Assembly (NCBI GenBank): GCA_936450465.1
Contig: OW388297.1
Coordinates: forward strand, 53,498,989 to 53,562,988
Source: Gibbula magus
Taxonomy: Eukaryota; Mollusca; Gastropoda; Trochida; Trochidae
Direction of reading: 5' to 3'
DNA length: 64,000 nt
In this document: positions 2,093 to 61,383 of the stretch, piece after piece
How positions within the stretch are numbered: the stretch's first letter is position 1
How the letters are laid out: every line of letters starts with the position of its first letter
The notes under the pieces: model-generated
What the model was told of the DNA's origin: nothing
The model's input: only the letters and a program-made list of their open reading frames with translations
Databases searched by the model: none
Position numbers and translations under genes: made by a program

Positions 2093-2912
2093 GAGTATGG
2101 TAATTTATTTAAACAAACGTTTTATCATAGATAGCTTAATGTTTTTTCCTGACGATATGTGAACCCGAAATCTGCTTAAAAAAAATTTGCATAACACCTG
2201 CTTTAAACTTCTTCCATCCTGAGAACTAAGTGGAGTGATCTATGTCGGAAGAGAATTTTGTAAAGATGCTTTTGATTGTTTGTAAACATGATCTACAAAA
2301 ACGCAAATAACTGTGAAGTTTAGCCTACTGCTCACTGACGATCAGTCCAGTTCCCTCCGTGTTGATATGAAATGTTCAGACAGGACCACACTGCGGATGG
2401 TTATAACAGTCCTTTGCGCTTCCGTATTGATGCGCAGTGCCGTTCACTGTTGCAAATGTGTAGTCGTACCTTGTCACTATCATAGTCTGAAACCATTAGA
2501 ATATGACGTTACAATTGAAATAAATGATCAACAGAGATAAGCACGATATCAAAGGGAGCAATTTAAATTAATCTCACATGATTTAAACATGTGTGTATCA
2601 TACCAAAAGGTGACTGACTTTTAAGTACAATATATCAAGAACAGGCACATGTCAAGAAGGACATGATACCCGCCAAAATGCATACTTCAAAACCTGTCAC
2701 ACAACTACCCACAAATCAAATGATCTTGTGTGGGATGATTCATTCTGGCACCGAGTGCAGAATATGAAGGACTTTGCCTAATATGGTGTCGATACTGTAG
2801 TTTGAATCGTTGAACAATTTGAATACAAGATGTACAATATCAAAGTGTTAAAATGGATATCATCAGTAACTGTACAACTTGACATAATTCGCACTTGAAC
2901 CATCTCTTCCCA

Positions 2913-2958
2913 CTGTCAGAGGTTACTCCCTTCAAATGTCCGATCCTCACCTCTGTTG
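2913..2958 (+). repeat. Inverted copy of a candidate GON-gene terminal exon
   Basis: About 45 bp match, with few changes, the minus-strand sequence at 3378-3425. Both copies can be read as G-Y-S-L-Q-(M/I)-S-D-P-(H/N)-L-C-(C/S)-F. A shorter relative of the leading part (CTCTTCCCACAGAGGTTACT) sits on the minus strand near 45283-45305. It may be a duplicated exon or a short dispersed repeat. Confidence 0.6.
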
Positions 2959-3341
2959 TTTTAAGCTTGATTGATTGATTGCAATTGAATTTAGTTATGC
3001 AATCAGCGACGCCGTTGGAAATGTGACATTTGCTAATGACACGTCATGATGATAAAATATACGTAAGACCAACGTTTTCTCGTTTAATGTGTTTTTCTCG
3101 AAATATGCCATTTGATTTTGTGAAATAAACATGCTTATCAATAAAGGAAACCAAATCAGAGACAAAACAGTTCATTCTGGTTATTTACATCAGACATATT
3201 CGACTTCATATATGCTTATGAGCAAGACCCTTAAGAGTATAATGCCTAGATCTTTGAAGTCACTCGGTCGAGATGCGACTGAAAGATGAGTTTCCATTGG
3301 TTAAGAAGCAGGGATACAGTATGACATTCAGCTTTCCACCG

Positions 3342-4397
3342 CTAGAGGATATTGCTTCTGCTATCGATTTCAACCGAAAAAGAACAGAGGTTAGGATCGG
3401 AAATCTGAAGGGAGTAACCTCTGTGAGAAGAGAATGCACATAAACATGAGTTTACCTCTATGTTGACACGAATCTTGTTGAATTGAATCGTTCCCGGTCT
3501 TCCTGCAGTAACTGGCCTCTCTTCGTTACAACCGATATTAGTTATATTCGGGTACACTCCGGTGTTGGTTACAGGCAGACTGATGTACTCGGATGGAGTG
3601 GCTGTGTTCATGTTGTGACAGTAGATCTTTGTTGGACACCCCAGGAAGGTGGGAGCATCTGGGTACAGCCAGTACTCGCCGTCCTCCGCATCAGGAGACG
3701 CTGCCTTCACCTCCCTACAGGACTGCTGGACAGATTCTGATCAGAAAGCACATAAACATAGTATTGTCATCAACATCAACATCAACAACTAACAGTTTAC
3801 ATACATTTTATGGTTACAAAGATCTAACTTATATTTTACGAATTCAATCGGCAAATGAACGCTACTTTCAAACATAAAACACAAAAACTTTCGGGCTGTT
3901 ACTCATTGACCTTTCGTTATATGAATGTTATAAAGGTTTGTCAACACTTTAGTAAAATCTTGTGACGTTTCCCTGTTGCTGTGTTGATACATTCTGACTT
4001 CCCCAAACTAAACTAGTGAGACACTCTCTCCAATCAGAGTTGCATCTATTCACGAGTTTATTCTACACATCTTACCTCCTTGTATTCTGTAGAGCATATT
4101 GTTGCTGTTGATCTGTTTTTCTGTTGGTATACCCAAACACTGGCTGGTGACACACTCGCTTCTTCCAGAGTTGTACACGAACCACAGCAGTAGAGGATTT
4201 GATGCTGCAACTTCGGCACATTCTTGGAGACTCATATCAGACAAAGTCTCCAGAAGGGAGCTATACTGACTGTCAATATCAAATATATGACCATCCTTCA
4301 CGAATCGAGACCAGTTGCCTGTGATGTGACCGGTGACGTACTGTTGTAAGGCTAGTATCATAACACATGAAGCAAGGCAGAAATATCTGTCGGCCAT
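3342..4397 (-). CDS. Secreted PAN-like/GON-domain protein, 3' end uncertain
   Basis: Exon 1 (4397-4076, 107 codons plus one base) starts at an ATG in good context (AAGATGG). It encodes a signal peptide (hydrophobic run CLASCVMILAL), then a segment with a PAN/apple-like look (LQECAEVAASN...LWFVYNSGRSECVTSQC). The donor is GTAAGA and the intron is phase 1. Exon 2 (3736-3456) starts after a CTGATCAG acceptor and reads ESVQQSCREV, then DGEYWLYPD, CPTKIYC, SEYISLP and FNKIRVNIE. This is the pattern of the N-terminal half of GON domains (as in ADAMTS9/20): Cys, DGEY, IYC, EYI and a late KIR. The next donor is GTAAAC, phase 0. A possible last exon (3404-3342; ISDPNLCSFSVE... to TAG) follows a CCCTTCAG acceptor, but other acceptors nearby give other frames. 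The second half of a normal GON domain was not found, so the gene may be truncated or continue in missed exons. Such proteins are secreted; the ligand is unknown. Confidence 0.65.
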
Positions 4398-9363: not shown

Positions 9364-9547
9364 GTAACCACACCCTATAGCTGTCATTTTGCACATGGGT
9401 GGACATGTCCCTTCCGTACCGCGCCAATGCCTTCCGTAGCTACAAGTGCCTTCTTTTTCCAACGGTGCGTATTATAGTTTGGTACAGTATATCTAATACA
9501 TGTTTTCATTTATGCATTCAAGGATTTAATTAACAGTTAGTTGGTTT

Positions 9548-10939
9548 GACTGTTCTTAAAACCATTGAGGTGAACAAAACAGGTCTAATGTGTTAGTTGG
9601 TTTGGGAATTTTTAATTTAGCTGCTTACAACAATATTAGGATACAAAAGCTTTCAATAATGTAAGTAGTTTTATTTTTACTTTTTCCTAAAATTTTCATC
9701 AATAAGTCTCAAATTCAAATCATTTAAATTTCTTTTGAATAACTCAAAGAGTTTTTATAAAGTTTCTATAATGTCATATTGTAACAACGGTTTCGAAAAG
9801 CAACAAAATGCGTCTAACTGTTTTTCTTTTACAATGCATAGAGTTTATGCTGTTATATAGGTAAGAATACATTTACGAGCGAAACAAATCTAATACGTTC
9901 TCAAATGGGATTCTGTAAATATAACATATTGACTGTTCTTAAAACCATTGAGGTGAACAAAACAGGTCTAATGTGTTAGTTGGTTTGGGAATTTTTTAAT
10001 TTAGCTGCTTACAACAATATTAGGATACAAAAGCTTTCAATAATGTAAGTAGTTTTATTTTTACTTTTTCCTAAAATTTTCATCAATAAGTCTCAAATTC
10101 AAATCATTTAAATTTCTTTTGAATAACTCAAATAGTTTTTATAAAGTTTCTATAATGTCATATTGTAACAACGGTTTCGAAAAGCAACAAAATGCGTCTA
10201 ACTGTTTTTCTTTTACAATGCATAGAGTTTATGCTGTTACATAGGTAAGAATACATTTACGAGCGAAACAAATCTAATACGTTCTCAAATGGGATTCTGT
10301 AAATATAACATATTGACTGTTCTTAAAACCATTGAGGTGAACAAAACAGGTCTAATGTGTTAGTTGGTTTGGGAATTTTTTAATTTAGCTGCTTACAACA
10401 ATATTAGGATACAAAAGCTTTCAATAATGTAAGTAGTTTTATTTTTACTTTTTCCTAAAATTTTCATCAATAAGTCTCAAATTCAAATCATTTAAATTTC
10501 TTCTGAATAACTCAAATAGTTTTTATAAAGTTTCTATAATGTCATATTGTAACAACGGTTTCGAAAAGCAACAAAATGCGTCTAACTGTTTTTCTTTTAC
10601 AATGCATAGAGTTTATGCTGTTAGCTATTTAGCTGCTTACAACAATATTAGGATACAAAAGCTTTCAATAATGTAAGTAGTTTTATTTTTACTTTTTCCT
10701 AAAATTTTCATCAATAAGTCTCAAATTCAAATCATTTAAATTTCTTCTGAATAACTCAAAGAGTTTTTATAAAGTTTCTATAATGTCATATTGTAACAAC
10801 GGTTTCGAAAAGCAACAAAATGCGTCTAACTGTTTTTCTTTTACAATGCATAGAGTTTATGCTGTTACATAGGTAAGAATACATTTACGAGCGAAACAAA
10901 TCTAATACGTTCTCAAATGGGATTCTGTAAATATAACAA
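9548..10939. repeat. Tandem array of a ~384-bp unit, about 3.5 copies
   Basis: Units start with GACTGTTCTTAAAACCATTG at 9548, 9931 and 10315 (spacing 383 and 384). A fourth, partial unit starts at about 10625 and enters at TTTAGCTGCTTACAACAATA; about 140 bp are missing at the copy 3/4 junction (GCTGTTAGCTATTTAGC). Copies differ at only a few sites (CTCAAAGAG versus CTCAAATAG, TTTCTTTTG versus TTTCTTCTG), so the array is young. No open frame is shared. Confidence 0.95.
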
Positions 10940-23555: not shown

Positions 23556-24856
23556 TACGAGGGCCGTTCAATAAAAGTTTTCCCTGACCAACTTCTCTTT
23601 ACCGGAAGAAGTAGAAATTACACATGTGATATGTAGCATGTCTCCATAGGTCAAGTGATGTATCACACTTTTCAAATATTCATTATTTCTGTCAGCACAG
23701 GATTTACAGCAGAGTAAGGTGTAAAAACAGGGATGAGAATAAGAATTTTCCTTTTCAGCTGAAATAAGTCGGGGGTCTGGGGGCCACCGGCCACCAGCCA
23801 GGTCCAGGGCTATTGAGTACAAAGCGGTTATCAGGTTTTTATTCTTGAAGGGTCGTACACCAAAGGAGACTTTTGATGAGATGAAAGAAACCCATGGAGA
23901 GCTTATCGATGCCACATCGTATGACGTTGTCAAACACTGGCATCGTCAGTTCAAGTGTGGTCGGACCTCCGTGGAAACAGCTTCAATTCCAGGTCGACCC
24001 CAGTCTGCTATTGATGGTGACTCTATCAGGCAAGTGGAAGCTGCAATGTTTGAAGATCGCCGAATTATTGTCCGCCAACTTGCCCAAGATATCAAGATAA
24101 GTGTGGGGTATGTGGAGAAAATAATTCATGACTATTTGCACATGCGTTGTCAGCTTTGTGGATACGCCGACTTCTCACACGTTTCCAAAAGCAGGAACGA
24201 GTCGAGTCGAATGTGCAAAGAAAACCAGGATAACTTTTCGACAGACTAATCACACAGGAAACATGGGTTCATCACTATGACCCTGAAAGTAAAATCAAGT
24301 CAAAGCAGTGGAAGCATCTTCAGTCACCATGGCCACCCACTAAAAAGGCACGGGTCAAGACTTCGGCAGGCAAGGTTATACTAACCGTATTGTGGGGTCA
24401 GCAGGGTGTAATCATAATATATTTTTTGGAAAGGAGTACCACAATTATTTGGGCATACTACGCTTGTTTGCTGCAAAAATCGCGGAAAGCAATCAAAACT
24501 GAGAGACGCGGTATGCTCACTAAAGGTGTCCGTCTGCTTCAGGACAATGCTCCTGTCAACAACTCACGTGTAGCTCAGACGGAAGCGTAGACTTGCGGCT
24601 ATAAAATACTTCCTCACCCACCGTATTCTCCTGACATTGCACCATCTGATTTCTTCTTCTTCCCAAACATGAAGTCATGTTTTAAAGGCACTCGTTTTCC
24701 TGATGATGAAACCCTCATTAATGATGTCAAGCGATGGGAGAAATGTGTCACACTGGGTGGTGCCAATGTAGAGAAAGACAAATAACTGTACCAAATTTCG
24801 TTTCTTTCAGTAAAGTAGAAGTCCATCAGGGAAAGCTTTATTGAACGCCCGTCGTA
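23556..24856 (+). mobile_element. Full-length but dead mariner element
   Basis: The ends are inverted: CGAGGGCCGTTCAATAAAAG...TTTTCCCTGA at the left and TCAGGGAAAGCTTTATTGAACGCCCGTCG at the right. A TA dinucleotide sits at each boundary (23556-23557 and 24855-24856), the mariner target duplication. The length of about 1.3 kb is the usual mariner size. The transposase inside is broken (separate entry). The 5' leader holds a G/C-rich stretch (GGGGGTCTGGGGGCCACCGG) that looks foreign to the element. Confidence 0.92.
23824..24784 (+). pseudogene. mariner transposase, frameshifted and with a nonsense codon
   Basis: Residues in order: KAVIRFLFLKGRTPKETFDE and VVKHWHRQFKCGRTSVET (first helix-turn-helix), IPGRPQSA linker, DRRIIVRQLAQDIKISVGYV (second helix-turn-helix), WVHHYDPES, TVLWGQQGV, LLQDNAP, HPPYSPDIAPSDFFFFP and a C-terminal WEKCVTLGGANVEKDK. 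This is a cut-and-paste transposase of the D,D34D type: the Asp of QDNAP and the Asp of APSD are 34 residues apart, counting the stop. Damage: a one-base frameshift in the T-run near 24234, an in-frame TAG at 24588-24590, and the first catalytic Asp replaced (QETW instead of the usual DETW). The start is unclear because the reading frame continues upstream of the first Met at 23845. Confidence 0.9.
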
Positions 24857-35324: not shown

Positions 35325-36685
35325 GTTCAACTGTTCAACTGTTTTATTACTCATAAACCACCTTCGGTGGTACAAGAGCATATACACAAATACAATTTAC
35401 AATTTACAGGCATGCGTCTGTAGACAGACAATGATTACAATTAATAGTTCATTGAATAATACAAGAATATGTGAATATAAAACAGACAGAATACAGATAT
35501 TTACTAAATATTTGTTAGCATATTTTGAAGCTGTATGATAAAACTTGACAAGTATTTCTTATGTACGATGGTTGTTGGCGACAGGACGTATACTAAACTA
35601 GATATATTGTTATTAAAACATTTGTTTGTGGGTAGATTTAAATTTAGTATTGGACAGTTTAAAATATAGTGTAATTCGTCACCGATTACACTTACACCCA
35701 ATACCAAAAGAAACTTTGCATCTCAGTTGATTTTATCATATGTATGTTTTTCAATTACAAATATTTCAAGTTTTGGACTACGTACACTAAAACTGAAAAG
35801 TAATGGCGTATTGTCATCAGTCAAATATTTTTTTCAGAAGTTTTTAATTTTTTTACAAAAAAATGAAATTTAAAAAAATTTAAAAAATTAAACTTTTAAT
35901 TTTGACAAGACACACATGTTAAGCGACTTACGCACTACTGAAACAGTTTCTGATGTTAAAAGTTCGTTGATATTACCCATTAGCAAAGACCACCGAGTAC
36001 GAGACCACCACCGAATCACAGACGAATTGATCAAACACATTTTGATACCCCTCGTATGTTGATGCGTCCAAACTTTTTATTTAAATAAACTTTTGAAATG
36101 AATATTTTCATACATCGAATGTAAAATTTAATAATTATTACAATACTTAAAAACCCAAATCCAATCGTTGCCTATTATGTGATTTATTAAGACAAGAAGA
36201 TGGGTGCAAAGTTTCTTTTGGTATTGGGTTTAGGTTACAAAGTTTACAATATCTTTCATCCCTTGGTATGTTCTGCCATATTCCAGTTTCAATTGGTAAG
36301 TTGAGATTTAAGGTTCTTAATTTAAAAATTGGAACATAAATATGTTTAGGAGAAAGTAAATATTTTTCGAAAACTAATGTTTGTTTATAGTGTTGATAAT
36401 ACATTCACTTTGGACTTGATCTGATATTTTCTCTACAATTTGAGTGAATTGATCTCTGAGAATTTGTCCAGCTTTCAAAACTAGAAAAGACGTGGAACAT
36501 ACCGAGGGGTTTACAAATACATGTGATAATCCAATTCTAACTAATAATATTTGGACAAAGTGAATCCATGGGTCCGAATTAAAGTTTTCGTTACATTTAT
36601 CAAACTATAATGATATAACACGTTGGATAATTTAATTGTATCAGTACATGTTAGTTTGTGCCAAAAGGATAACATACGCTGGTAT
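35322..36685 (-). mobile_element. 5'-truncated LINE inserted in locus A
   Basis: Minus-strand reading: VYQRMLSFWHKLTCTDTIKL, (frameshifts) QILRDQFTQIVEKISDQVQS, YVPIFKLRTLNLNLPIETGI, WQNIPRDERYCKLCN, and, after an interruption, VIGDELHYILNCPILN. This is the C-terminal part of a non-LTR ORF2 with a C-x2-C...H-x4-C knuckle. The 3' end has the hairpin CCACCGAAGGTGG, then AATAAAACAGTTGAACAGTTGAACAG. Both ends coincide with the points where homology to locus B stops (about 35325 and 36680), which dates the insertion after the A/B duplication. It is pseudogenic. Confidence 0.82.
35697..36233. mobile_element. Insertion with inverted ends splitting the LINE knuckle
   Basis: CCCAATACCAAAAGAAACTT plus TGCA is read on the plus strand at 35698 and on the minus strand at about 36229. 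On the minus strand the LINE protein breaks off at CKLCNLN just above 36230 and resumes with VIGDELHY below 35697. The simplest reading is a roughly 530-bp element with 24-bp inverted ends inside the LINE. I could not see a clean target duplication, so an inversion is also possible. Confidence 0.55.
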
Positions 36686-36825
36686 ACCCAAATTGTGGGA
36701 AAACTTTTACAACCTGAGAGTTTGTTGGTTTGCTTCAACTTCCAACACTTAGTCATGAGCTGGACATGGGCCTCGGGTCATCCAGACGAAGTCTGCATCA
36801 TCCGGTGCACGTGTTTTCTCTGACA

Positions 36826-37866
36826 TCAACCAACGAATAGATATGATCGAAATGGAGAATACATCTTCGCAACCTTCTTCTTTGGTACTTTCTTAAGACG
36901 TTTGAAGATATGTTTAACCCTTTTCAATATCTTCAGGAAATGATGTTGAGAATGCCTGAGTTTTATCTCCATCAACGATCTTGACGAGTGACCAGAGTGT
37001 TCAACTGTAACAGAAAATGGCCACATTTAAAGATGCAGAAATAAACTAATGGTAGTGATGTAAGAGGGATAACTTCAAAACGAGAAACCCTTAAAGGGTC
37101 CCTTAAAGAAAATTTTAAATTATCATTGTGTTAATAGATTTATTTTTGTGTTGCTGAAGATATGTTATTAAATTAAAAGAGACATTAATCCAATGGTGAC
37201 AACTACGTGAATGTTTACTCCTTACAAAGGCACCAGATCGTAATTTTTAACATAAATTAAGAAATATACTTACATAAAATTATAACAACTAGTGTATGTG
37301 TTTGAAGACGTCAAAAGGAGAATTATTATGATGCTTTAAATAACATAAGTTGCTTAAAAAAGACTTGTTGGAAACATTTGGATTTGATTATACTAATTTT
37401 GTCTGTGTTTATCATACATATAGTCACTTAGCAATGTAATAATTGAGTAACAGTTATTGACAACCTACCCCTCGGAGACTCGGAGACTAGACAGAGATGA
37501 AGCAAAACGAGCAGAAGAAGAACCTGCTTCATGGACATGTTGACAAAAATCGTCATTCTGGAAAACATAAAAAGTAAAAGTTGAGCACTTTTTTGGAAAA
37601 TTTACTATAGTTCTAGTCTTGTCTAATCCCCTTTTCAAACACTCCCTCCGATGTTTGATCGTTTTGGCACCTACACAAATAAAAGTGTCACAAAAACACA
37701 AAAATTAAGTCTCAGCAAATGCAATACATACCTGATAATTACAGAATGTCAGAATTGAGTTACTATTGGTGTTCAAAATGATGTCAAATATGAAAGGCCG
37801 ACAGCAGAAAAGATGTACTTACAGCAAGGGAAACCTTTCTCAGCCCTTCCTGGATGTGCTGTGAAT
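36826..37866 (-). CDS. Secreted cationic peptide precursor, paralogue A (candidate antimicrobial peptide)
   Basis: Three exons. Exon 1 (about 37866-37823) is an untranslated leader ending at a GTAAGT donor. Exon 2 (37557-37469) follows TTTTCCAG and begins A-ATG. It encodes 29 residues with a signal peptide (MSMKQVLLLLVLLHLCL, then VSES) and ends in phase 1 at GTAGGT. Exon 3 (37004-36826) follows CTGTTACAG and gives 59 residues to TGA: VEHSGHSSRS, RHSQHHFLKILKRVKHIF, KRLKKVPKKKVAK, ending FRSYLFVG. The precursor is 88 residues, or 82 from the better-context Met7. The mature part has no Cys, 11 Lys, 5 Arg, 6 His and only 2 Glu, with hydrophobics every 3-4 residues, as in linear amphipathic helical peptides. 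Paralogue B has identical exon lengths and phases. I do not recognise the family; the antimicrobial role is inferred from composition only. Confidence 0.75.
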
Positions 37867-37888
37867 GATTCATCGACATATGTTCTTC

Positions 37889-37925
37889 TTTAAATATCCT
37901 CATGAGAACTACTCCTTGTTTATCT
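37889..37925 (-). promoter_or_regulatory. TATA box and upstream GATA-like motif of gene A
   Basis: TATTTAAA on the minus strand at 37889-37896, 30 bases before the A of an initiator-like TCATTC (A at 37866). The same spacing is seen in copies B and C. AGATAA, a GATA-factor-type site, lies at 37920-37925 and is kept in copy C but not in B. The initiator is conserved in all three copies. Confidence 0.65.
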
Positions 37926-38276
37926 CATGTTTATTTTGAGCTACATTTCTAGTATGCTTTACTAAGGGCTTTCTACCATAGGGTAAATGTTCTGTTTGGT
38001 TTGTCTCCCAGGGATTTTTTTTTCTCCAATTTGTATTCCCAACTGCTATCTGTAGAAGAGCAGGTAACCGTTAGACAGTAGAAAGACATCCCGGTCCTGC
38101 ACTGCACTGTCGAAAACAATGAAAGACAAAACATACAATCGACGATCAAGCACCTAATGCACTAGGGATGTCCATTTAAGATGACGTTTCAAAATGTTGT
38201 CATGATATTCTACAAAAGCATATATCACTTCAAATCCAATACATCTCCTGTTAGAAAGTGTCACAAGATTACAAAA

Positions 38277-38876: not shown

Positions 38877-39146
38877 CTCCAAACTAAACTTACAGCAAGA
38901 AAAACTATTCTCAGCTTTTCCTGGATGTGCTGTGAATGATTCATCGACATATGTTCTTCTTTAAATATCCTCATGCGAACTACTCTTTGATTATCTCATG
39001 TTTATTTTGAGCTAGTTTCTAGTTTCCTTTACTGAGGGCCTTCTACCATAGGGTAATCCTTCTGTGTGGTTTGTCTCCCAGGGATTTTTTTCTCCAATTT
39101 TTATTCCCAACTGATATCTGTAGAAGAGCAGGTAACCGTTGGACAA
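38877..39146 (-). promoter_or_regulatory. Duplicate promoter plus first exon (copy C) upstream of gene A
   Basis: About 270 bp match 37805-38082, including TATTTAAA (38960-38967), the initiator TCATTC (A at 38937), the AGATAA site, the leader exon (CACAGCACATCCAGGAAAAG...TTGCT) and an intact GTAAGT donor (exon end 38894). No coding exons 2-3 follow before gene A, so this is either an orphan fragment or an alternative first exon that could splice to gene A exon 2 at 37557. Confidence 0.65.
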
Positions 39147-56009: not shown

Positions 56010-56546
56010 CAAGGACACGGCAAGGGTATATTCTATGTGCGATGTATTGTTCTGGGACGCAAGACACAAAGGTATATATGCATAACACAGTTCACCACTA
56101 TCTGTTCTTCAGCAGTGGTAGGTGCAGATTATCCACGGATTGGAGACCCGCTCATGTCTGTCTTATCTGAGGGGCAGACATAGTGAGACCTATCCGTGAA
56201 TAAAAGTCAATAGACAACTTTGACCGTTTTCACCTGCATCCACATGTAGTTAAACAGCTTGGTACCTTATTCAGCATGGGACAGATTATCAATTGTTGAG
56301 CTTTTTCAATAGAAGGGGTACCCGGCTTACGACTTGCTAATCTGAAGGTTTAAAAGTTGGCCTTGAACTGGTACATCTGTCCATCATGGCCCTAAGAGTT
56401 TATTCAAATGTGTTGCTGTTCCTACCCAACTTGTGGGAGAACCTGAGAGTTTGTTGGTTTGGTTCCGCTTCCAACACTTATTCATGAACTGGACACGGTC
56501 CTCGGTTCATCCAGACGAAGTCTGCGTCATCCGTTACTCTCTGACA

Positions 56547-57596
56547 TCAACCAACGAATAGGTGTGATCGGAAAGTAGTATACGTTTTGGCAACCTTCTT
56601 CTTCTGTAATTTCCTAAGACGTTTTAAGACATGTTGAACTTTTGGCAACAATTTTTGGAAACGATGTCGAAAATGCCTGATGTTTACATCCATTCTCGAT
56701 CTTGATAATTGACCAGAGTGTTTAACTGTAACAGAACATGGTTATTTGTAAATGCAGATGCAGAAAAAAATCAAAAGTAGTGAGGAATAAAACTTTAAAA
56801 AAAACAACACTTGGTACCCATTAGGAATGATAAGTCAAACTTCATTGTGTTATTAGTTATACTATTTGTTGTGTAAATATAAGTAAACTTTCGTCACATA
56901 TTAAGATAGACATTGGTCAAATGGTGACATTTATGTGAAATTGTACTACTTCAAAGAGGTCACGTCATACAAAATAATTAAAAACTATTAAGGAATATAC
57001 TGACATAAATGATAGCAATAGTGTATAAGCAGTTAGATGTCAATAGGAGAAGTATTATGCTTGTGTAAATTATATAAATTAAATCGTTAGAAACATCTGG
57101 ACCTACATTACAATTTATCACTTGGGTCCGAATACATATAATTAATTGTCAAAGCAATAGAATAATTGAGTAACAGCTATTGACAACTTACCATTCCTAG
57201 ACTCAGAGAATAGACAGAGATGAAGCAAAACGACCAGAAGACGAACCTGCTTCATGGACATGTTGACAAAAATCTTCATTCTGAAAAAACATAAAAAAAT
57301 AAAAGATGAGTACTCTGTTTTGAAATTTAGCGTTTACTACAAAACTTGAAGTGTCAAGACAATACATAATGAACTATGTAAAAAAAATAACAAAGACAAA
57401 AACAAAAACAAATAATTTTCTCAGCGAAAGCAACTCCTATCTCTGTATTAGAATTGCGTTACTGAAGATGATCCAAAATTTGTTTGATAGAAACATAGTA
57501 AGTATGAAAGGTTAAGAACAAGAAAAATGTACTTACAGCAAAGGAGAATATTCTCAGCTCTTGGCAGATGAATGCGATGCGGTGAATGCAGTGAAT
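56547..57596 (-). CDS. Secreted cationic peptide precursor, paralogue B (candidate antimicrobial peptide)
   Basis: Leader exon 1 (about 57596-57537, GTAAGT donor); exon 2 (57280-57192; ATG at 57279, 88 coding bases, GTAAGT donor, phase 1); exon 3 (56725-56547, 179 bases to TGA). The coding segments have exactly the same lengths as in gene A. The signal region MKIFVNMSMKQV / RLLVVLLHLCLFSES is 23/29 identical to A. The mature part (VKHSGQLSRSRMDV, RHFRHRFQKLLPKVQHVL, KRLRKLQKKKVAK, FRSHLFVG) is 34/59 identical. The invariant parts are HSG, SRS, KKKVAK, FRS and the LFVG end. No Cys in the mature peptide; very basic, with one acidic residue. All splice sites and the frame are intact, so it is probably functional. 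Secretion is supported by the signal peptide; a membrane-active or antimicrobial role is inferred. Confidence 0.77.
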
Positions 57597-57619
57597 GATT
57601 CGTCGACAGGTATGTTCTC

Positions 57620-57627
57620 TTTATATA
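57620..57627 (-). promoter_or_regulatory. TATA box of gene B
   Basis: TATATAAA on the minus strand, 31 bases before the A of the initiator TCATTC (A at 57596). Matches the layout at gene A and promoter copy C. Confidence 0.65.
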
Positions 57628-57998
57628 TCCTGATACGAACCAATCCTTGTTTATGGCACGTTTATTTTGAGTAACAAATGTACATTTTCCTTTACTGGGG
57701 GTCTTCTACCATAGGTTATTCGTTCCATGTGGTATATCCCCCGTTAATCTGTTCTCACGTGGTGAAATAAATTTCATCTCAATCACGTTTTCAAGAACGT
57801 TTCAACAGTTTTCAGCATTTTCAATTGTACAACGTTTGCGACAAGGAACCCCCTAACGAAGTTTATAACATGTATAGAACAGGCGATACGAAAATCCTTT
57901 AGAAATATCTGCATTTAGTATATCAAGGTTTAGTTATATATTTGACTATGAATATTTAATGAAGAGCTCTCTCTCTCAAATTGCACGGATATAGATGT

Positions 57999-60156: not shown

Positions 60157-61383
60157 TTTTTTTTGTTTTTTTTTATGTTTTTATTCCCAAGAAATCACAT
60201 TACATATATATGCAAGCATATAGGACAATGTTTACACTTGTTTGTATATAGGAATATGAAGATAAAACAAAAAACCTGTTGATTTGCATGATGTCATCTC
60301 AAATTAAGAAGAGTGTTGACATTCTTGTACACAATGATATGGCCTATTCATTGTAAACAGTAGTTTCTTGCACATGAAATAAAGGGATTGAAATAGAAGA
60401 AACATTGGAAGATCATTGTGAATAAGGTTATATTAATAGAGTGTGGAGTGATGACCAAAACGCAAAGAATTTTGTTTGTTCATTGTTTGAGTAAGCAATG
60501 TATTTGCATAATTTATAGTATCTTCTTATTTCATTTTTAATATGATTAAAATTTGGCTTTGAATCTTTTCTGCTCATATTGTAAATGGTTTTTTTCACAA
60601 TCAGGCAGATTACATTTAACGGATTGTTATTTTTCCCTTTAAAGCCAAAAAGTATATTTTCAAGATTTAATTCAATATGTCCTTCACTCAAGGTTCCAAG
60701 CCATGATGCCAAATCTCTCCACACTCCATATACAATGTTACATTCAAATAATAAATGCTGTACAGATTCTTGCGTCTGTTTACAGAATATGCATAGTGGT
60801 GAATCAATCAAACCAATCTTGTACAAAAACTTATTGGTTGTTAAAATGTTTTGAGTTACCTTGTATTGAAAATATTTCAAATTCACACTTTGTGTGCATC
60901 TATTGGGCATTAAATTAATATTTTCCCATTCAGTCTGTGTAAGTTCTCGTCCCAATCTTTCTTCCCATTTCAGCTGACCTGATGTTCTAGCAAATGCAAA
61001 ATTACATAGTATTTGATAATAATATTTACTTTTCTTACCCATGCTCATCACACCTATGTTAAAAGGGAGAATAGGATATAGTTGTCTATTTTCCAGCATC
61101 TTGACTTTTTTTCTTCAAGTAGTCAGCTACTGCTTTTTTTATACTAAGATATTCAAGGAAGTTGATATTAATGTTAAACTTATCTTTCAGATGTCCTAGG
61201 GAAGCAAAATTTCCATCTTCTTTTAAAATATGACAGAGAAATACAATTCCCTTTTCTTCCCATTTCTTAAAGTAAACTGGCTTCCTATCTATCAAAATAT
61301 TATTATTGCACCATAGTGCCTGGCATAGAATATCTTTTCCTTCAGTAATGTTTTTATAGTGAATATTTAGGTATTCTGACCAT
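60157..61383 (-). mobile_element. 5'-truncated LINE with poly-A tail and perfect 15-bp target duplication
   Basis: ATCCATAAGCTTGTT is found at 60142-60156 and again at 61384-61398. Directly inside the first copy lies a T-rich run (T10-G-T10), which is the poly-A tail on the minus strand. The rest is ORF2 C-terminus reading on the minus strand (separate entry). All signs of target-primed reverse transcription are present, and the empty site can be read directly. Confidence 0.95.
60428..61383 (-). pseudogene. LINE ORF2 C-terminal region (L1/Tx1-like zinc-binding domain), one frameshift
   Basis: From the truncated 5' end: SEYLNIHYKNITEGKDILCQ, ALWCNNNILIDRKPVYFKKW, EEKGIVFLCHILKEDGNFAS, then LSIKKAVADYLKKK. 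A one-base slip in the A7 run near 61107 follows, then MLENRQLYPILPF..., ERLGRELTQTEWENIN, FQYKVTQNILTTNKFLYKIG, LIDSPLCIFCKQTQESVQHL, LFECNIVYGVWRDLASWL and onward to a stop at 60428. C-x2-C...H-x4-C in SPLCIFC...HLLFEC is the zf-RVT motif of L1/Tx1-type ORF2. The endonuclease and polymerase domains are missing. Confidence 0.88.

What the first reader, a model, noticed from the sequence alone, without database searches (positions are those of the whole stretch)
36826..37866. Undescribed family of small secreted, linear, highly cationic peptides (paralogue A)
Assembling three exons by their splice sites gives an 88-residue precursor with a clean signal peptide and a 59-residue, cysteine-free, Lys/Arg/His-rich tail whose hydrophobic residues recur every 3-4 positions. 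That is typical of helical membrane-active peptides. It is invisible to simple ORF calling because the start and tail are on separate exons. The identical gene structure of paralogue B makes chance very unlikely. I know no named mollusc peptide family with the HSG...KKKVAK...FRS.LFVG pattern.
Basis: partly seen in the sequence, partly recalled or inferred. Interest (0 to 1): 0.93.

Follow-up and report, generated by a model that had tools for sequence, protein, structure and literature searches.

The report
Paired cationic secreted peptides in snail
Two neighbouring, duplicated genes in a marine snail (likely the turban top shell) are predicted to make small, secreted, strongly positively charged peptides that matched no known protein in our searches and that likely help kill microbes by disrupting their membranes.

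Summary
Three minus-strand exons with the stated junctions give an 88-residue precursor. Paralogue B, about 20 kb away, has the same exons, phases and length (57 of 88 residues identical). Both have a TATA box 30-31 bp before an initiator, a 5'UTR-only exon 1, the first AUG at the head of exon 2 and a phase-1 intron 2. No indel falls in the 268 bases of exons 2-3, against 16 in 683 intron columns. A third copy (C) of promoter plus exon 1 lies 1 kb upstream of A. By size the genome is Gibbula magus, chromosome 9. Protein A finds only A and B there; Pfam, PDB and a 5.8-billion-protein set (which holds abalone proteins) give no relative. The mature region is cysteine-free, +15/+17, predicted helical and ends Gly-stop in both (amidation signal): like cecropins in chemistry, not by homology. 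Best reading: a lineage-restricted host-defence peptide pair. Caveats: amino-acid conservation does not exceed neutral expectation, amphipathicity is not shown to be selected, transcription is untested, and searches with B and the 3'UTR did not complete. A real, probably undescribed family of a known kind.

The parts
37867..38009 (-). A: proximal promoter conserved with B and C (TATA-like TATTTAAAG starting at 37896, 30 bp before the initiator A at 37866)
37823..37866 (-). A: exon 1, 5'UTR only, starting in the initiator TCATTC, donor GTAAGT
37469..37557 (-). A: exon 2, start ATG at 37556, signal peptide (residues 1-29), donor GTAGGT, phase 1
36826..37004 (-). A: exon 3 coding part, mature cationic region to stop; ends Leu-Phe-Val-Gly-stop
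36690..36825 (-). A: 3'UTR conserved with B (89% over 119 aligned columns); first poly(A)-signal-like ATTAAA starts further on at 36636
57597..57742 (-). B: proximal promoter (TATA-like TATATAAAG starting at 57627, 31 bp before the initiator A at 57596)
57537..57596 (-). B: exon 1, 5'UTR only
57192..57280 (-). B: exon 2, start ATG at 57279, signal peptide, donor GTAAGT, phase 1
56547..56725 (-). B: exon 3 coding part, mature cationic region to stop; ends Leu-Phe-Val-Gly-stop
56399..56546 (-). B: 3'UTR, conserved with A down to about 56423; AATAAA starts at 56404
38888..39145 (-). C: third copy of promoter plus exon 1 plus donor only, 91% identical to 37817-38077; homology stops right after GTAAGT; no exon 2 or 3 of its own was found

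Best explanation
A and B are two duplicated three-exon genes predicted to encode 88-residue secreted precursors whose roughly 60-residue, cysteine-free, strongly cationic mature peptides likely fold into amphipathic helices that would disrupt microbial membranes as host-defence peptides. Steps: (1) a TATA/initiator promoter would start a short mRNA whose first exon is 5'UTR (elements shown; use inferred); (2) splicing would join the signal-peptide exon to the mature exon in phase 1 (sites shown; splicing inferred); (3) signal peptidase would remove about 27 residues (inferred); (4) the terminal Gly, present in both, would be converted to a C-terminal amide ending Leu-Phe-Val-NH2 (inferred); (5) the Lys/Arg/His face, with no acidic residue in positions 44-88 of either, would bind anionic microbial surfaces and the hydrophobic face would insert, more strongly at acid pH because of the 5-6 His (inferred). 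As far as the answered searches reach, the family is confined to this lineage.
For: Real gene: same architecture, splice phases and length in A and B; TATA-to-initiator spacing 30/31/30 in A/B/C; no gap event in exons 2-3 against 16 in the introns, and exon 3 less diverged than the introns (P = 0.003). Chemistry: net K+R-D-E +15 (A) and +17 (B) for residues 28-88, no Cys there, no Asp/Glu in 44-88; only A and B of 242 frames combine high charge and helical moment. B's net charge is reached in about 1% of stop-free neutral simulations starting from A. AlphaFold2, best of five models: A helices 10-38 and 41-57 of the 58-residue exon-3 piece (mean pLDDT 73), B one helix 5-56 (76). Gly-stop in both; Gly-extended C-termini and a Val-Pro hinge are reported for cecropins (PMC11554196, passages), and predicted C-terminal amidation for the linear mussel AMPs (PMC5577615, passages). 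The mature exon diverges faster than the signal exon (P = 0.027) and the 3'UTR (P = 0.019), uncorrected.
Against: No transcript, peptide or activity was tested. Amino-acid identity between A and B is what random placement of the same substitutions gives (46% of simulations reach it); hydropathy, class and BLOSUM conservation are likewise unremarkable. The helical moment of B's core is reached by 13-30% of neutral simulations from A, and A's by 5-27% from B. In the direction B to A, net charge is not unusual (9% for residues 28-88, 31% for the CDS). The hinge predicted in A is absent in B, pTM is 0.36 in both models and the five models of each average down to pLDDT 64-65. At about 61 residues it is longer than the 3-5 kDa cecropins.
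Confidence: 0.58

Rival explanations
1. Reproductive peptide: A and B are fast-evolving cationic sperm (acrosomal or seminal) peptides, acting on egg coats or in packaging as the abalone acrosomal proteins do.
For: Vetigastropods have duplicated, rapidly evolving acrosomal proteins, lysin and sp18 (PMC9022041, passages; PMC6952181, start of abstract in listing). A and B are duplicated and cationic, and the mature exon diverges faster than the signal exon and 3'UTR.
Against: No Pfam match above cut-off. The abalone paper implies that lysin's signal peptide is in exon 1 of 5; here it is in exon 2 of 3 after a 5'UTR exon. The models show extended helices, not a compact bundle, though at pTM 0.36. 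dN/dS over the CDS is 0.76, not above 1.
Confidence: 0.16
2. Amidated neuropeptide or hormone: the C-terminus after Lys-Lys-Lys is released as a short peptide ending Leu-Phe-Val-NH2, and the cationic stretch is a spacer.
For: C-terminal Gly-stop and KKK site in both; dN/dS 0.28 for residues 66-88 against 1.06 for 37-65. LFVa peptides occur in an annelid prokineticin precursor (PMC3890597, passage).
Against: The gradient is not significant on identity counts (16 of 23 against 18 of 38, P = 0.11); no repeated copies; two diverging paralogues; the 'spacer' is an amphipathic cationic stretch; one paper search for LFVamide-type terms listed only the annelid paper.
Confidence: 0.13
3. Other secreted cationic peptide (mucus or shell-matrix component) without antimicrobial purpose.
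For: Nothing here fixes the tissue or the target (inference; no call bears on it).
Against: An amphipathic helix plus an amidation signal is not expected of a simple matrix filler (inference).
Confidence: 0.08
4. Not a functional protein gene: decaying duplicates or a non-coding transcript with an accidental open frame.
For: Amino-acid identity equals neutral expectation; a stop-free CDS is expected by chance in 19% of simulations.
Against: No gap event in exons 2-3 against 16 in the introns (P = 0.005), with intact splice sites, start, stop, promoter and 3'UTR in both copies.
Confidence: 0.05

Closest known systems
Cecropins (insect linear amphipathic AMPs)
   Same: Cationic, helical, linear; Gly-extended C-terminus for amidation; Val-Pro at the hinge, as in A; exon 1 with the signal peptide more conserved than exon 2 in An. 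gambiae cecropin D (PMC11554196 passages).
   Different: No Pfam cecropin match; residues 28-88 weigh 7.4 kDa against 3-5 kDa; no hinge predicted in B; three exons with a 5'UTR exon instead of two.
Myticalins / modiocalins (mussel linear cationic AMPs)
   Same: Three exons: exon 1 only 5'UTR, ATG at the 5' end of exon 2, intron 2 in phase 1; cysteine-free; clustered paralogues; predicted amidation (PMC5577615 and PMC12294457 passages).
   Different: In myticalins the mature peptide is in exon 2 and an anionic C-terminal extension follows; here the mature peptide is in exon 3 and no acidic residue lies in 44-88. Myticalin mature regions have over 10% Arg (modiocalins Pro and Arg); here Lys/His dominate. 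Reported as restricted to Mytiloida. No myticalin sequence was compared directly.
Abalone lysin / sp18 acrosomal proteins
   Same: Secreted, duplicated, fast-evolving, vetigastropod; cationic (recalled).
   Different: Signal peptide in exon 1 of 5 by implication of the paper; no sequence match.
Histone H2A-derived AMPs of molluscs (molluskin; abhisin recalled)
   Same: Mollusc antimicrobial peptides; basic and cysteine-free (recalled).
   Different: They are histone fragments (PMC4890874, title and start of abstract in listing); here a dedicated secreted-type gene without a Pfam match.

Membership tests
Cecropin family | Sequence match to the family profile | tested here: not met
   Pfam scan: no family for A, only sub-threshold non-cecropin families for B
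Cecropin family | Two helices separated by a hinge | tested here: inconclusive
   predicted in A, not in B
Cecropin family | Gly-extended C-terminus | tested here: met
   A and B both end ...LFVG-stop
Cecropin family | 3-5 kDa mature peptide | tested here: not met
   7.35 and 7.44 kDa for residues 28-88; further trimming not excluded
Myticalin family | Exon 1 5'UTR only, ATG at head of exon 2, phase-1 intron 2 | tested here: met
   (predicted structure), compared
Myticalin family | Mature peptide encoded in exon 2 | tested here: not met
   exon 2 holds only the signal peptide
[quoted passage not shown]
   no Asp/Glu in residues 44-88 of A or B
Abalone lysin / sp18 | Sequence match to a family profile or solved structure | tested here: not met
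   Pfam, A and B; PDB, exon 3 of A only
Abalone lysin / sp18 | Testis expression | not testable with these tools
   no RNA data held
Amidated neuropeptide precursors | Gly amidation signal and dibasic cleavage site before the peptide | tested here: met
   KKK at residues 71-73 and Gly88-stop in both
Amidated neuropeptide precursors | Known mollusc peptide motif | tested here: inconclusive
   one paper search only; LFVa reported in an annelid prokineticin precursor
Linear alpha-helical antimicrobial peptides (functional class) | Cationic amphipathic helix | tested here: inconclusive
   charge met; moment high in A, weaker in B; helix predicted at mean pLDDT 73-76
Linear alpha-helical antimicrobial peptides (functional class) | Kills or permeabilises microbes | not testable with these tools
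   needs an assay

The most novel reading that the evidence does not exclude
A gene family confined to top shells makes dedicated, linear, helical, amidated host-defence peptides, perhaps the first gene-encoded ones of this sort from a gastropod, built on the same three-exon plan (5'UTR exon, ATG at the head of exon 2, phase-1 intron) as mussel myticalins. This would mean that molluscs reuse one promoter-signal cassette to mint unrelated mature peptides, with the orphan promoter-exon-1 module C as that cassette caught in the act.
Probability: 0.15. Interest if true: 0.8.

Novelty: new variant of a known kind. Interest (0 to 1): 0.5.

Why it matters
The overwhelming majority of mussel antimicrobial peptides studied are disulfide-stabilised, and myticalins are called one of the very few known molluscan AMPs lacking cysteine (PMC12294457, abstract passage). 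A lineage-restricted linear family in a top shell would be a new scaffold, and a public polyA RNA-seq run of the species (ERR10123686, named in PMC10394393) makes its transcription directly testable. The duplicated promoter-exon-1 module offers a way to see how such genes multiply.

Tried and rejected
Homologues: protein A and the A+B alignment against about 5.8 billion proteins gave 2 and 8 word-sharing candidates, none at E <= 10. Viral contigs (A only): 14 pattern matches, none confirmed. PDB (exon 3 of A only): 0 matches at E <= 10. Pfam: none for A; weak sub-threshold matches for B (DUF3473, PARG_cat_N, FadA and, at E 0.3, the insect AMP family Stomoxyn with two residues mistyped; FadA, PARG_cat_N, ATG1-like_MIT1, Peptidase_S49_N with the right letters), treated as chance. 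Paper search for peptide fragments: no paper holding two of four.

Whole genome: at E <= 0.001 protein A found only the exons of A and B (4 matches among 5 scored candidates). Promoter-exon-1 DNA found only A and C; B, about 74% alike there, was not found, so copies as distant as B can be missed. Searches with B and with the 3'UTR did not complete. The flanks on either side of the window (8989 and 8912 bases) hold no further copy (best A match 24 bits, E 0.008 for that small database, 25% identity, not taken as a copy). No structure-library search was run because pTM is 0.36. Whether the published Ensembl annotation of the species already lists these genes could not be checked.

Rejected: exons as parts of a larger gene or of a transposon. 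The A-B homology covers just promoter to 3'UTR (about 1.33 kb), and the coding exons occur twice in the genome as far as sees.

Scan for acceptor-ATG-hydrophobic-donor exons listed only B in the window, probably because A's donor is GTAGGT and the scan asked for GTRAG (0 in each of 20 random windows).

Full report
What is in the sequence. The stated exons are there. On the minus strand, exon 1 (37866-37823), exon 2 (37557-37469) and exon 3 (37004-36826) carry GT/AG borders and read without a stop into an 88-residue product with a hydrophobic signal segment and a basic, cysteine-free tail. Exon 1 is non-coding; the first ATG after the predicted start of transcription is the start codon at the head of exon 2. 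Intron 2 splits a Val codon in phase 1.

Paralogue B lies about 20 kb away on the same strand (exons 57596-57537, 57280-57192, 56725-56547). It has the same phases and length, with 57 of 88 residues identical. The homologous block is just the gene: about 1.33 kb from 140 bp of promoter into the 3'UTR, at 69.7%. Identity by region is promoter 74%, exon 1 75%, intron 1 60%, exon 2 90%, intron 2 70%, exon 3 78%, 3'UTR 89%, with 2, 1, 5, 0, 11, 0 and 2 gap events.

Promoter. A, B and a third site C all have a TATA-like element 30, 31 and 30 bp upstream of the same initiator TCATTC. C (38888-39145) is a 91% copy of A's promoter plus exon 1. It ends immediately after the donor GTAAGT, and no exon 2 or 3 of its own was found. 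In the whole genome, A's promoter-exon-1 DNA matches only A and C at that search's sensitivity, which misses B. C may be an alternative first exon of A or a partial duplicate; this was not tested.

Where it is. The window is 53,498,989-53,562,988 of contig 9 in a genome of 1,470,318,725 bases in 140 contigs; that contig is 78,278,488 bases long. The published Gibbula magus assembly spans 1,470.4 Mb with chromosome 9 of 78.28 Mb (PMC10394393, passages). The published scaffold count is 151, not 140, which I did not explain. A neighbouring GON-domain gene is closest to Haliotis proteins (49% and 46% identity for the top two of 5 matches; the third is Haliotis too, two are unnamed), which agrees with a vetigastropod. 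I treat G. magus as almost certain.

Is it coding? For: no gap event in the 268 bases of exons 2 and 3 against 16 in 683 aligned intron columns (P = 0.005); exon 3 less diverged than the introns (P = 0.003); intact start, stop, splice sites and promoter in both copies. Against: with the same substitutions placed at random on A, 46% of simulations reach the observed amino-acid identity and 19% stay stop-free; class, BLOSUM and hydropathy conservation are unremarkable. Nei-Gojobori dN/dS is 0.76 over the CDS, 1.06 for residues 37-65 and 0.28 for 66-88. The gradient is not significant on identity counts (18 of 38 for residues 28-65 against 16 of 23 for 66-88, P = 0.11). B's net charge is reached in about 1% of stop-free simulations from A, but the reverse test gives 9% (residues 28-88) and 31% (CDS). 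So the gene is very likely real, while selection on its protein is only suggested. The mature exon changes faster than the signal exon and its own 3'UTR (P = 0.027 and 0.019; uncorrected).

What the product looks like. Residues 28-88 have net K+R-D-E of +15 (A) and +17 (B), with 6 and 5 His, no Cys and pI 11.5 and 12. No Asp or Glu occurs in residues 44-88. Among 242 open frames of at least 58 aa in the window, 4 hold a 58-residue stretch of net charge +13 or more and only A and B of these also reach a helical moment of 0.64; in 8 random windows 5 of 1326 frames reach the charge and 0 reach both (thresholds post hoc). The best 24-residue moment is reached by 8 of 2000 shuffles of A and 33 of 2000 of B; for 18 residues 12 and 196 of 2000. 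AlphaFold2 from a two-row alignment gives A two helices (10-38 and 41-57 of the exon-3 piece, mean pLDDT 73) and B one (5-56, 76), with pTM 0.36 in both. Both precursors end Leu-Phe-Val-Gly-stop, a substrate for C-terminal amidation (inference from established PAM chemistry).

Relatives. None found: searches (A; A+B), Pfam, PDB with exon 3 of A, viral contigs with A. The protein set does hold abalone proteins, so the lack of a relative has some weight, though its word filter misses distant short peptides. In its own genome, protein A finds A and B only. Whole-genome searches with B and with the 3'UTR were requested repeatedly and never answered.

How it most likely works. It would be made as a secreted precursor, trimmed and amidated. 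As a cationic helix with His-dependent charge it would adsorb to and disrupt microbial membranes. Shown: exon sequences and borders, composition, Gly-stop. Predicted: splicing, secretion, helix. Inferred: amidation, membrane action, defence role. Rivals are a sperm peptide, an amidated neuropeptide or another secreted peptide; tissue expression would separate them.

Comparison with what is known. It would work like cecropins (Gly-extended, cationic, helical; PMC11554196 passages) but is not one: no profile match, 7.4 kDa, no hinge predicted in B. Its exon plan equals that of mussel myticalins (exon 1 5'UTR, ATG at head of exon 2, phase-1 intron 2; PMC5577615 passages), but in myticalins the mature peptide is in exon 2 and an anionic extension follows; here neither holds. 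I cannot say whether the shared plan means common descent of the 5' part or convergence. The paper searches showed no description of this peptide; they cover open-licence papers only and were read as listings, except for the passages cited from PMC5577615, PMC12294457, PMC3890597, PMC10394393, PMC9022041 and PMC11554196.

Noticed in passing
window 38888-39145 (-): Orphan copy (C) of A's promoter, exon 1 and donor, 91% identical, homology ending right after GTAAGT; possible alternative first exon of A.
   Followed up: partly
window 2376-4397 (-): Likely three-exon gene for a secreted-type protein with a GON domain; closest to Haliotis 'ADAMTS 9-like' proteins at 46-49%.
   Followed up: partly
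window 23743-24587 (+): Mos1/mariner-type transposase matches in two adjoining frames (HTH_48 and Transposase_1).
   Followed up: no
window 60431-61114 (-): LINE-like reverse-transcriptase C-terminal zinc-binding domain (zf-RVT).
   Followed up: no
window 37563-37429 against the aligned stretch of B (-): Exon 2 and the first 30 or so bases of intron 2 are 82-95% identical in A and B in 40-column windows, with very few synonymous changes in exon 2, against 60-70% over the introns as a whole; local gene conversion or constraint on the signal exon.
   Followed up: partly
window 9546-10867: 384-bp unit repeated 2.8 times at 99%, overlapping a 244-bp unit repeated twice.
   Followed up: no
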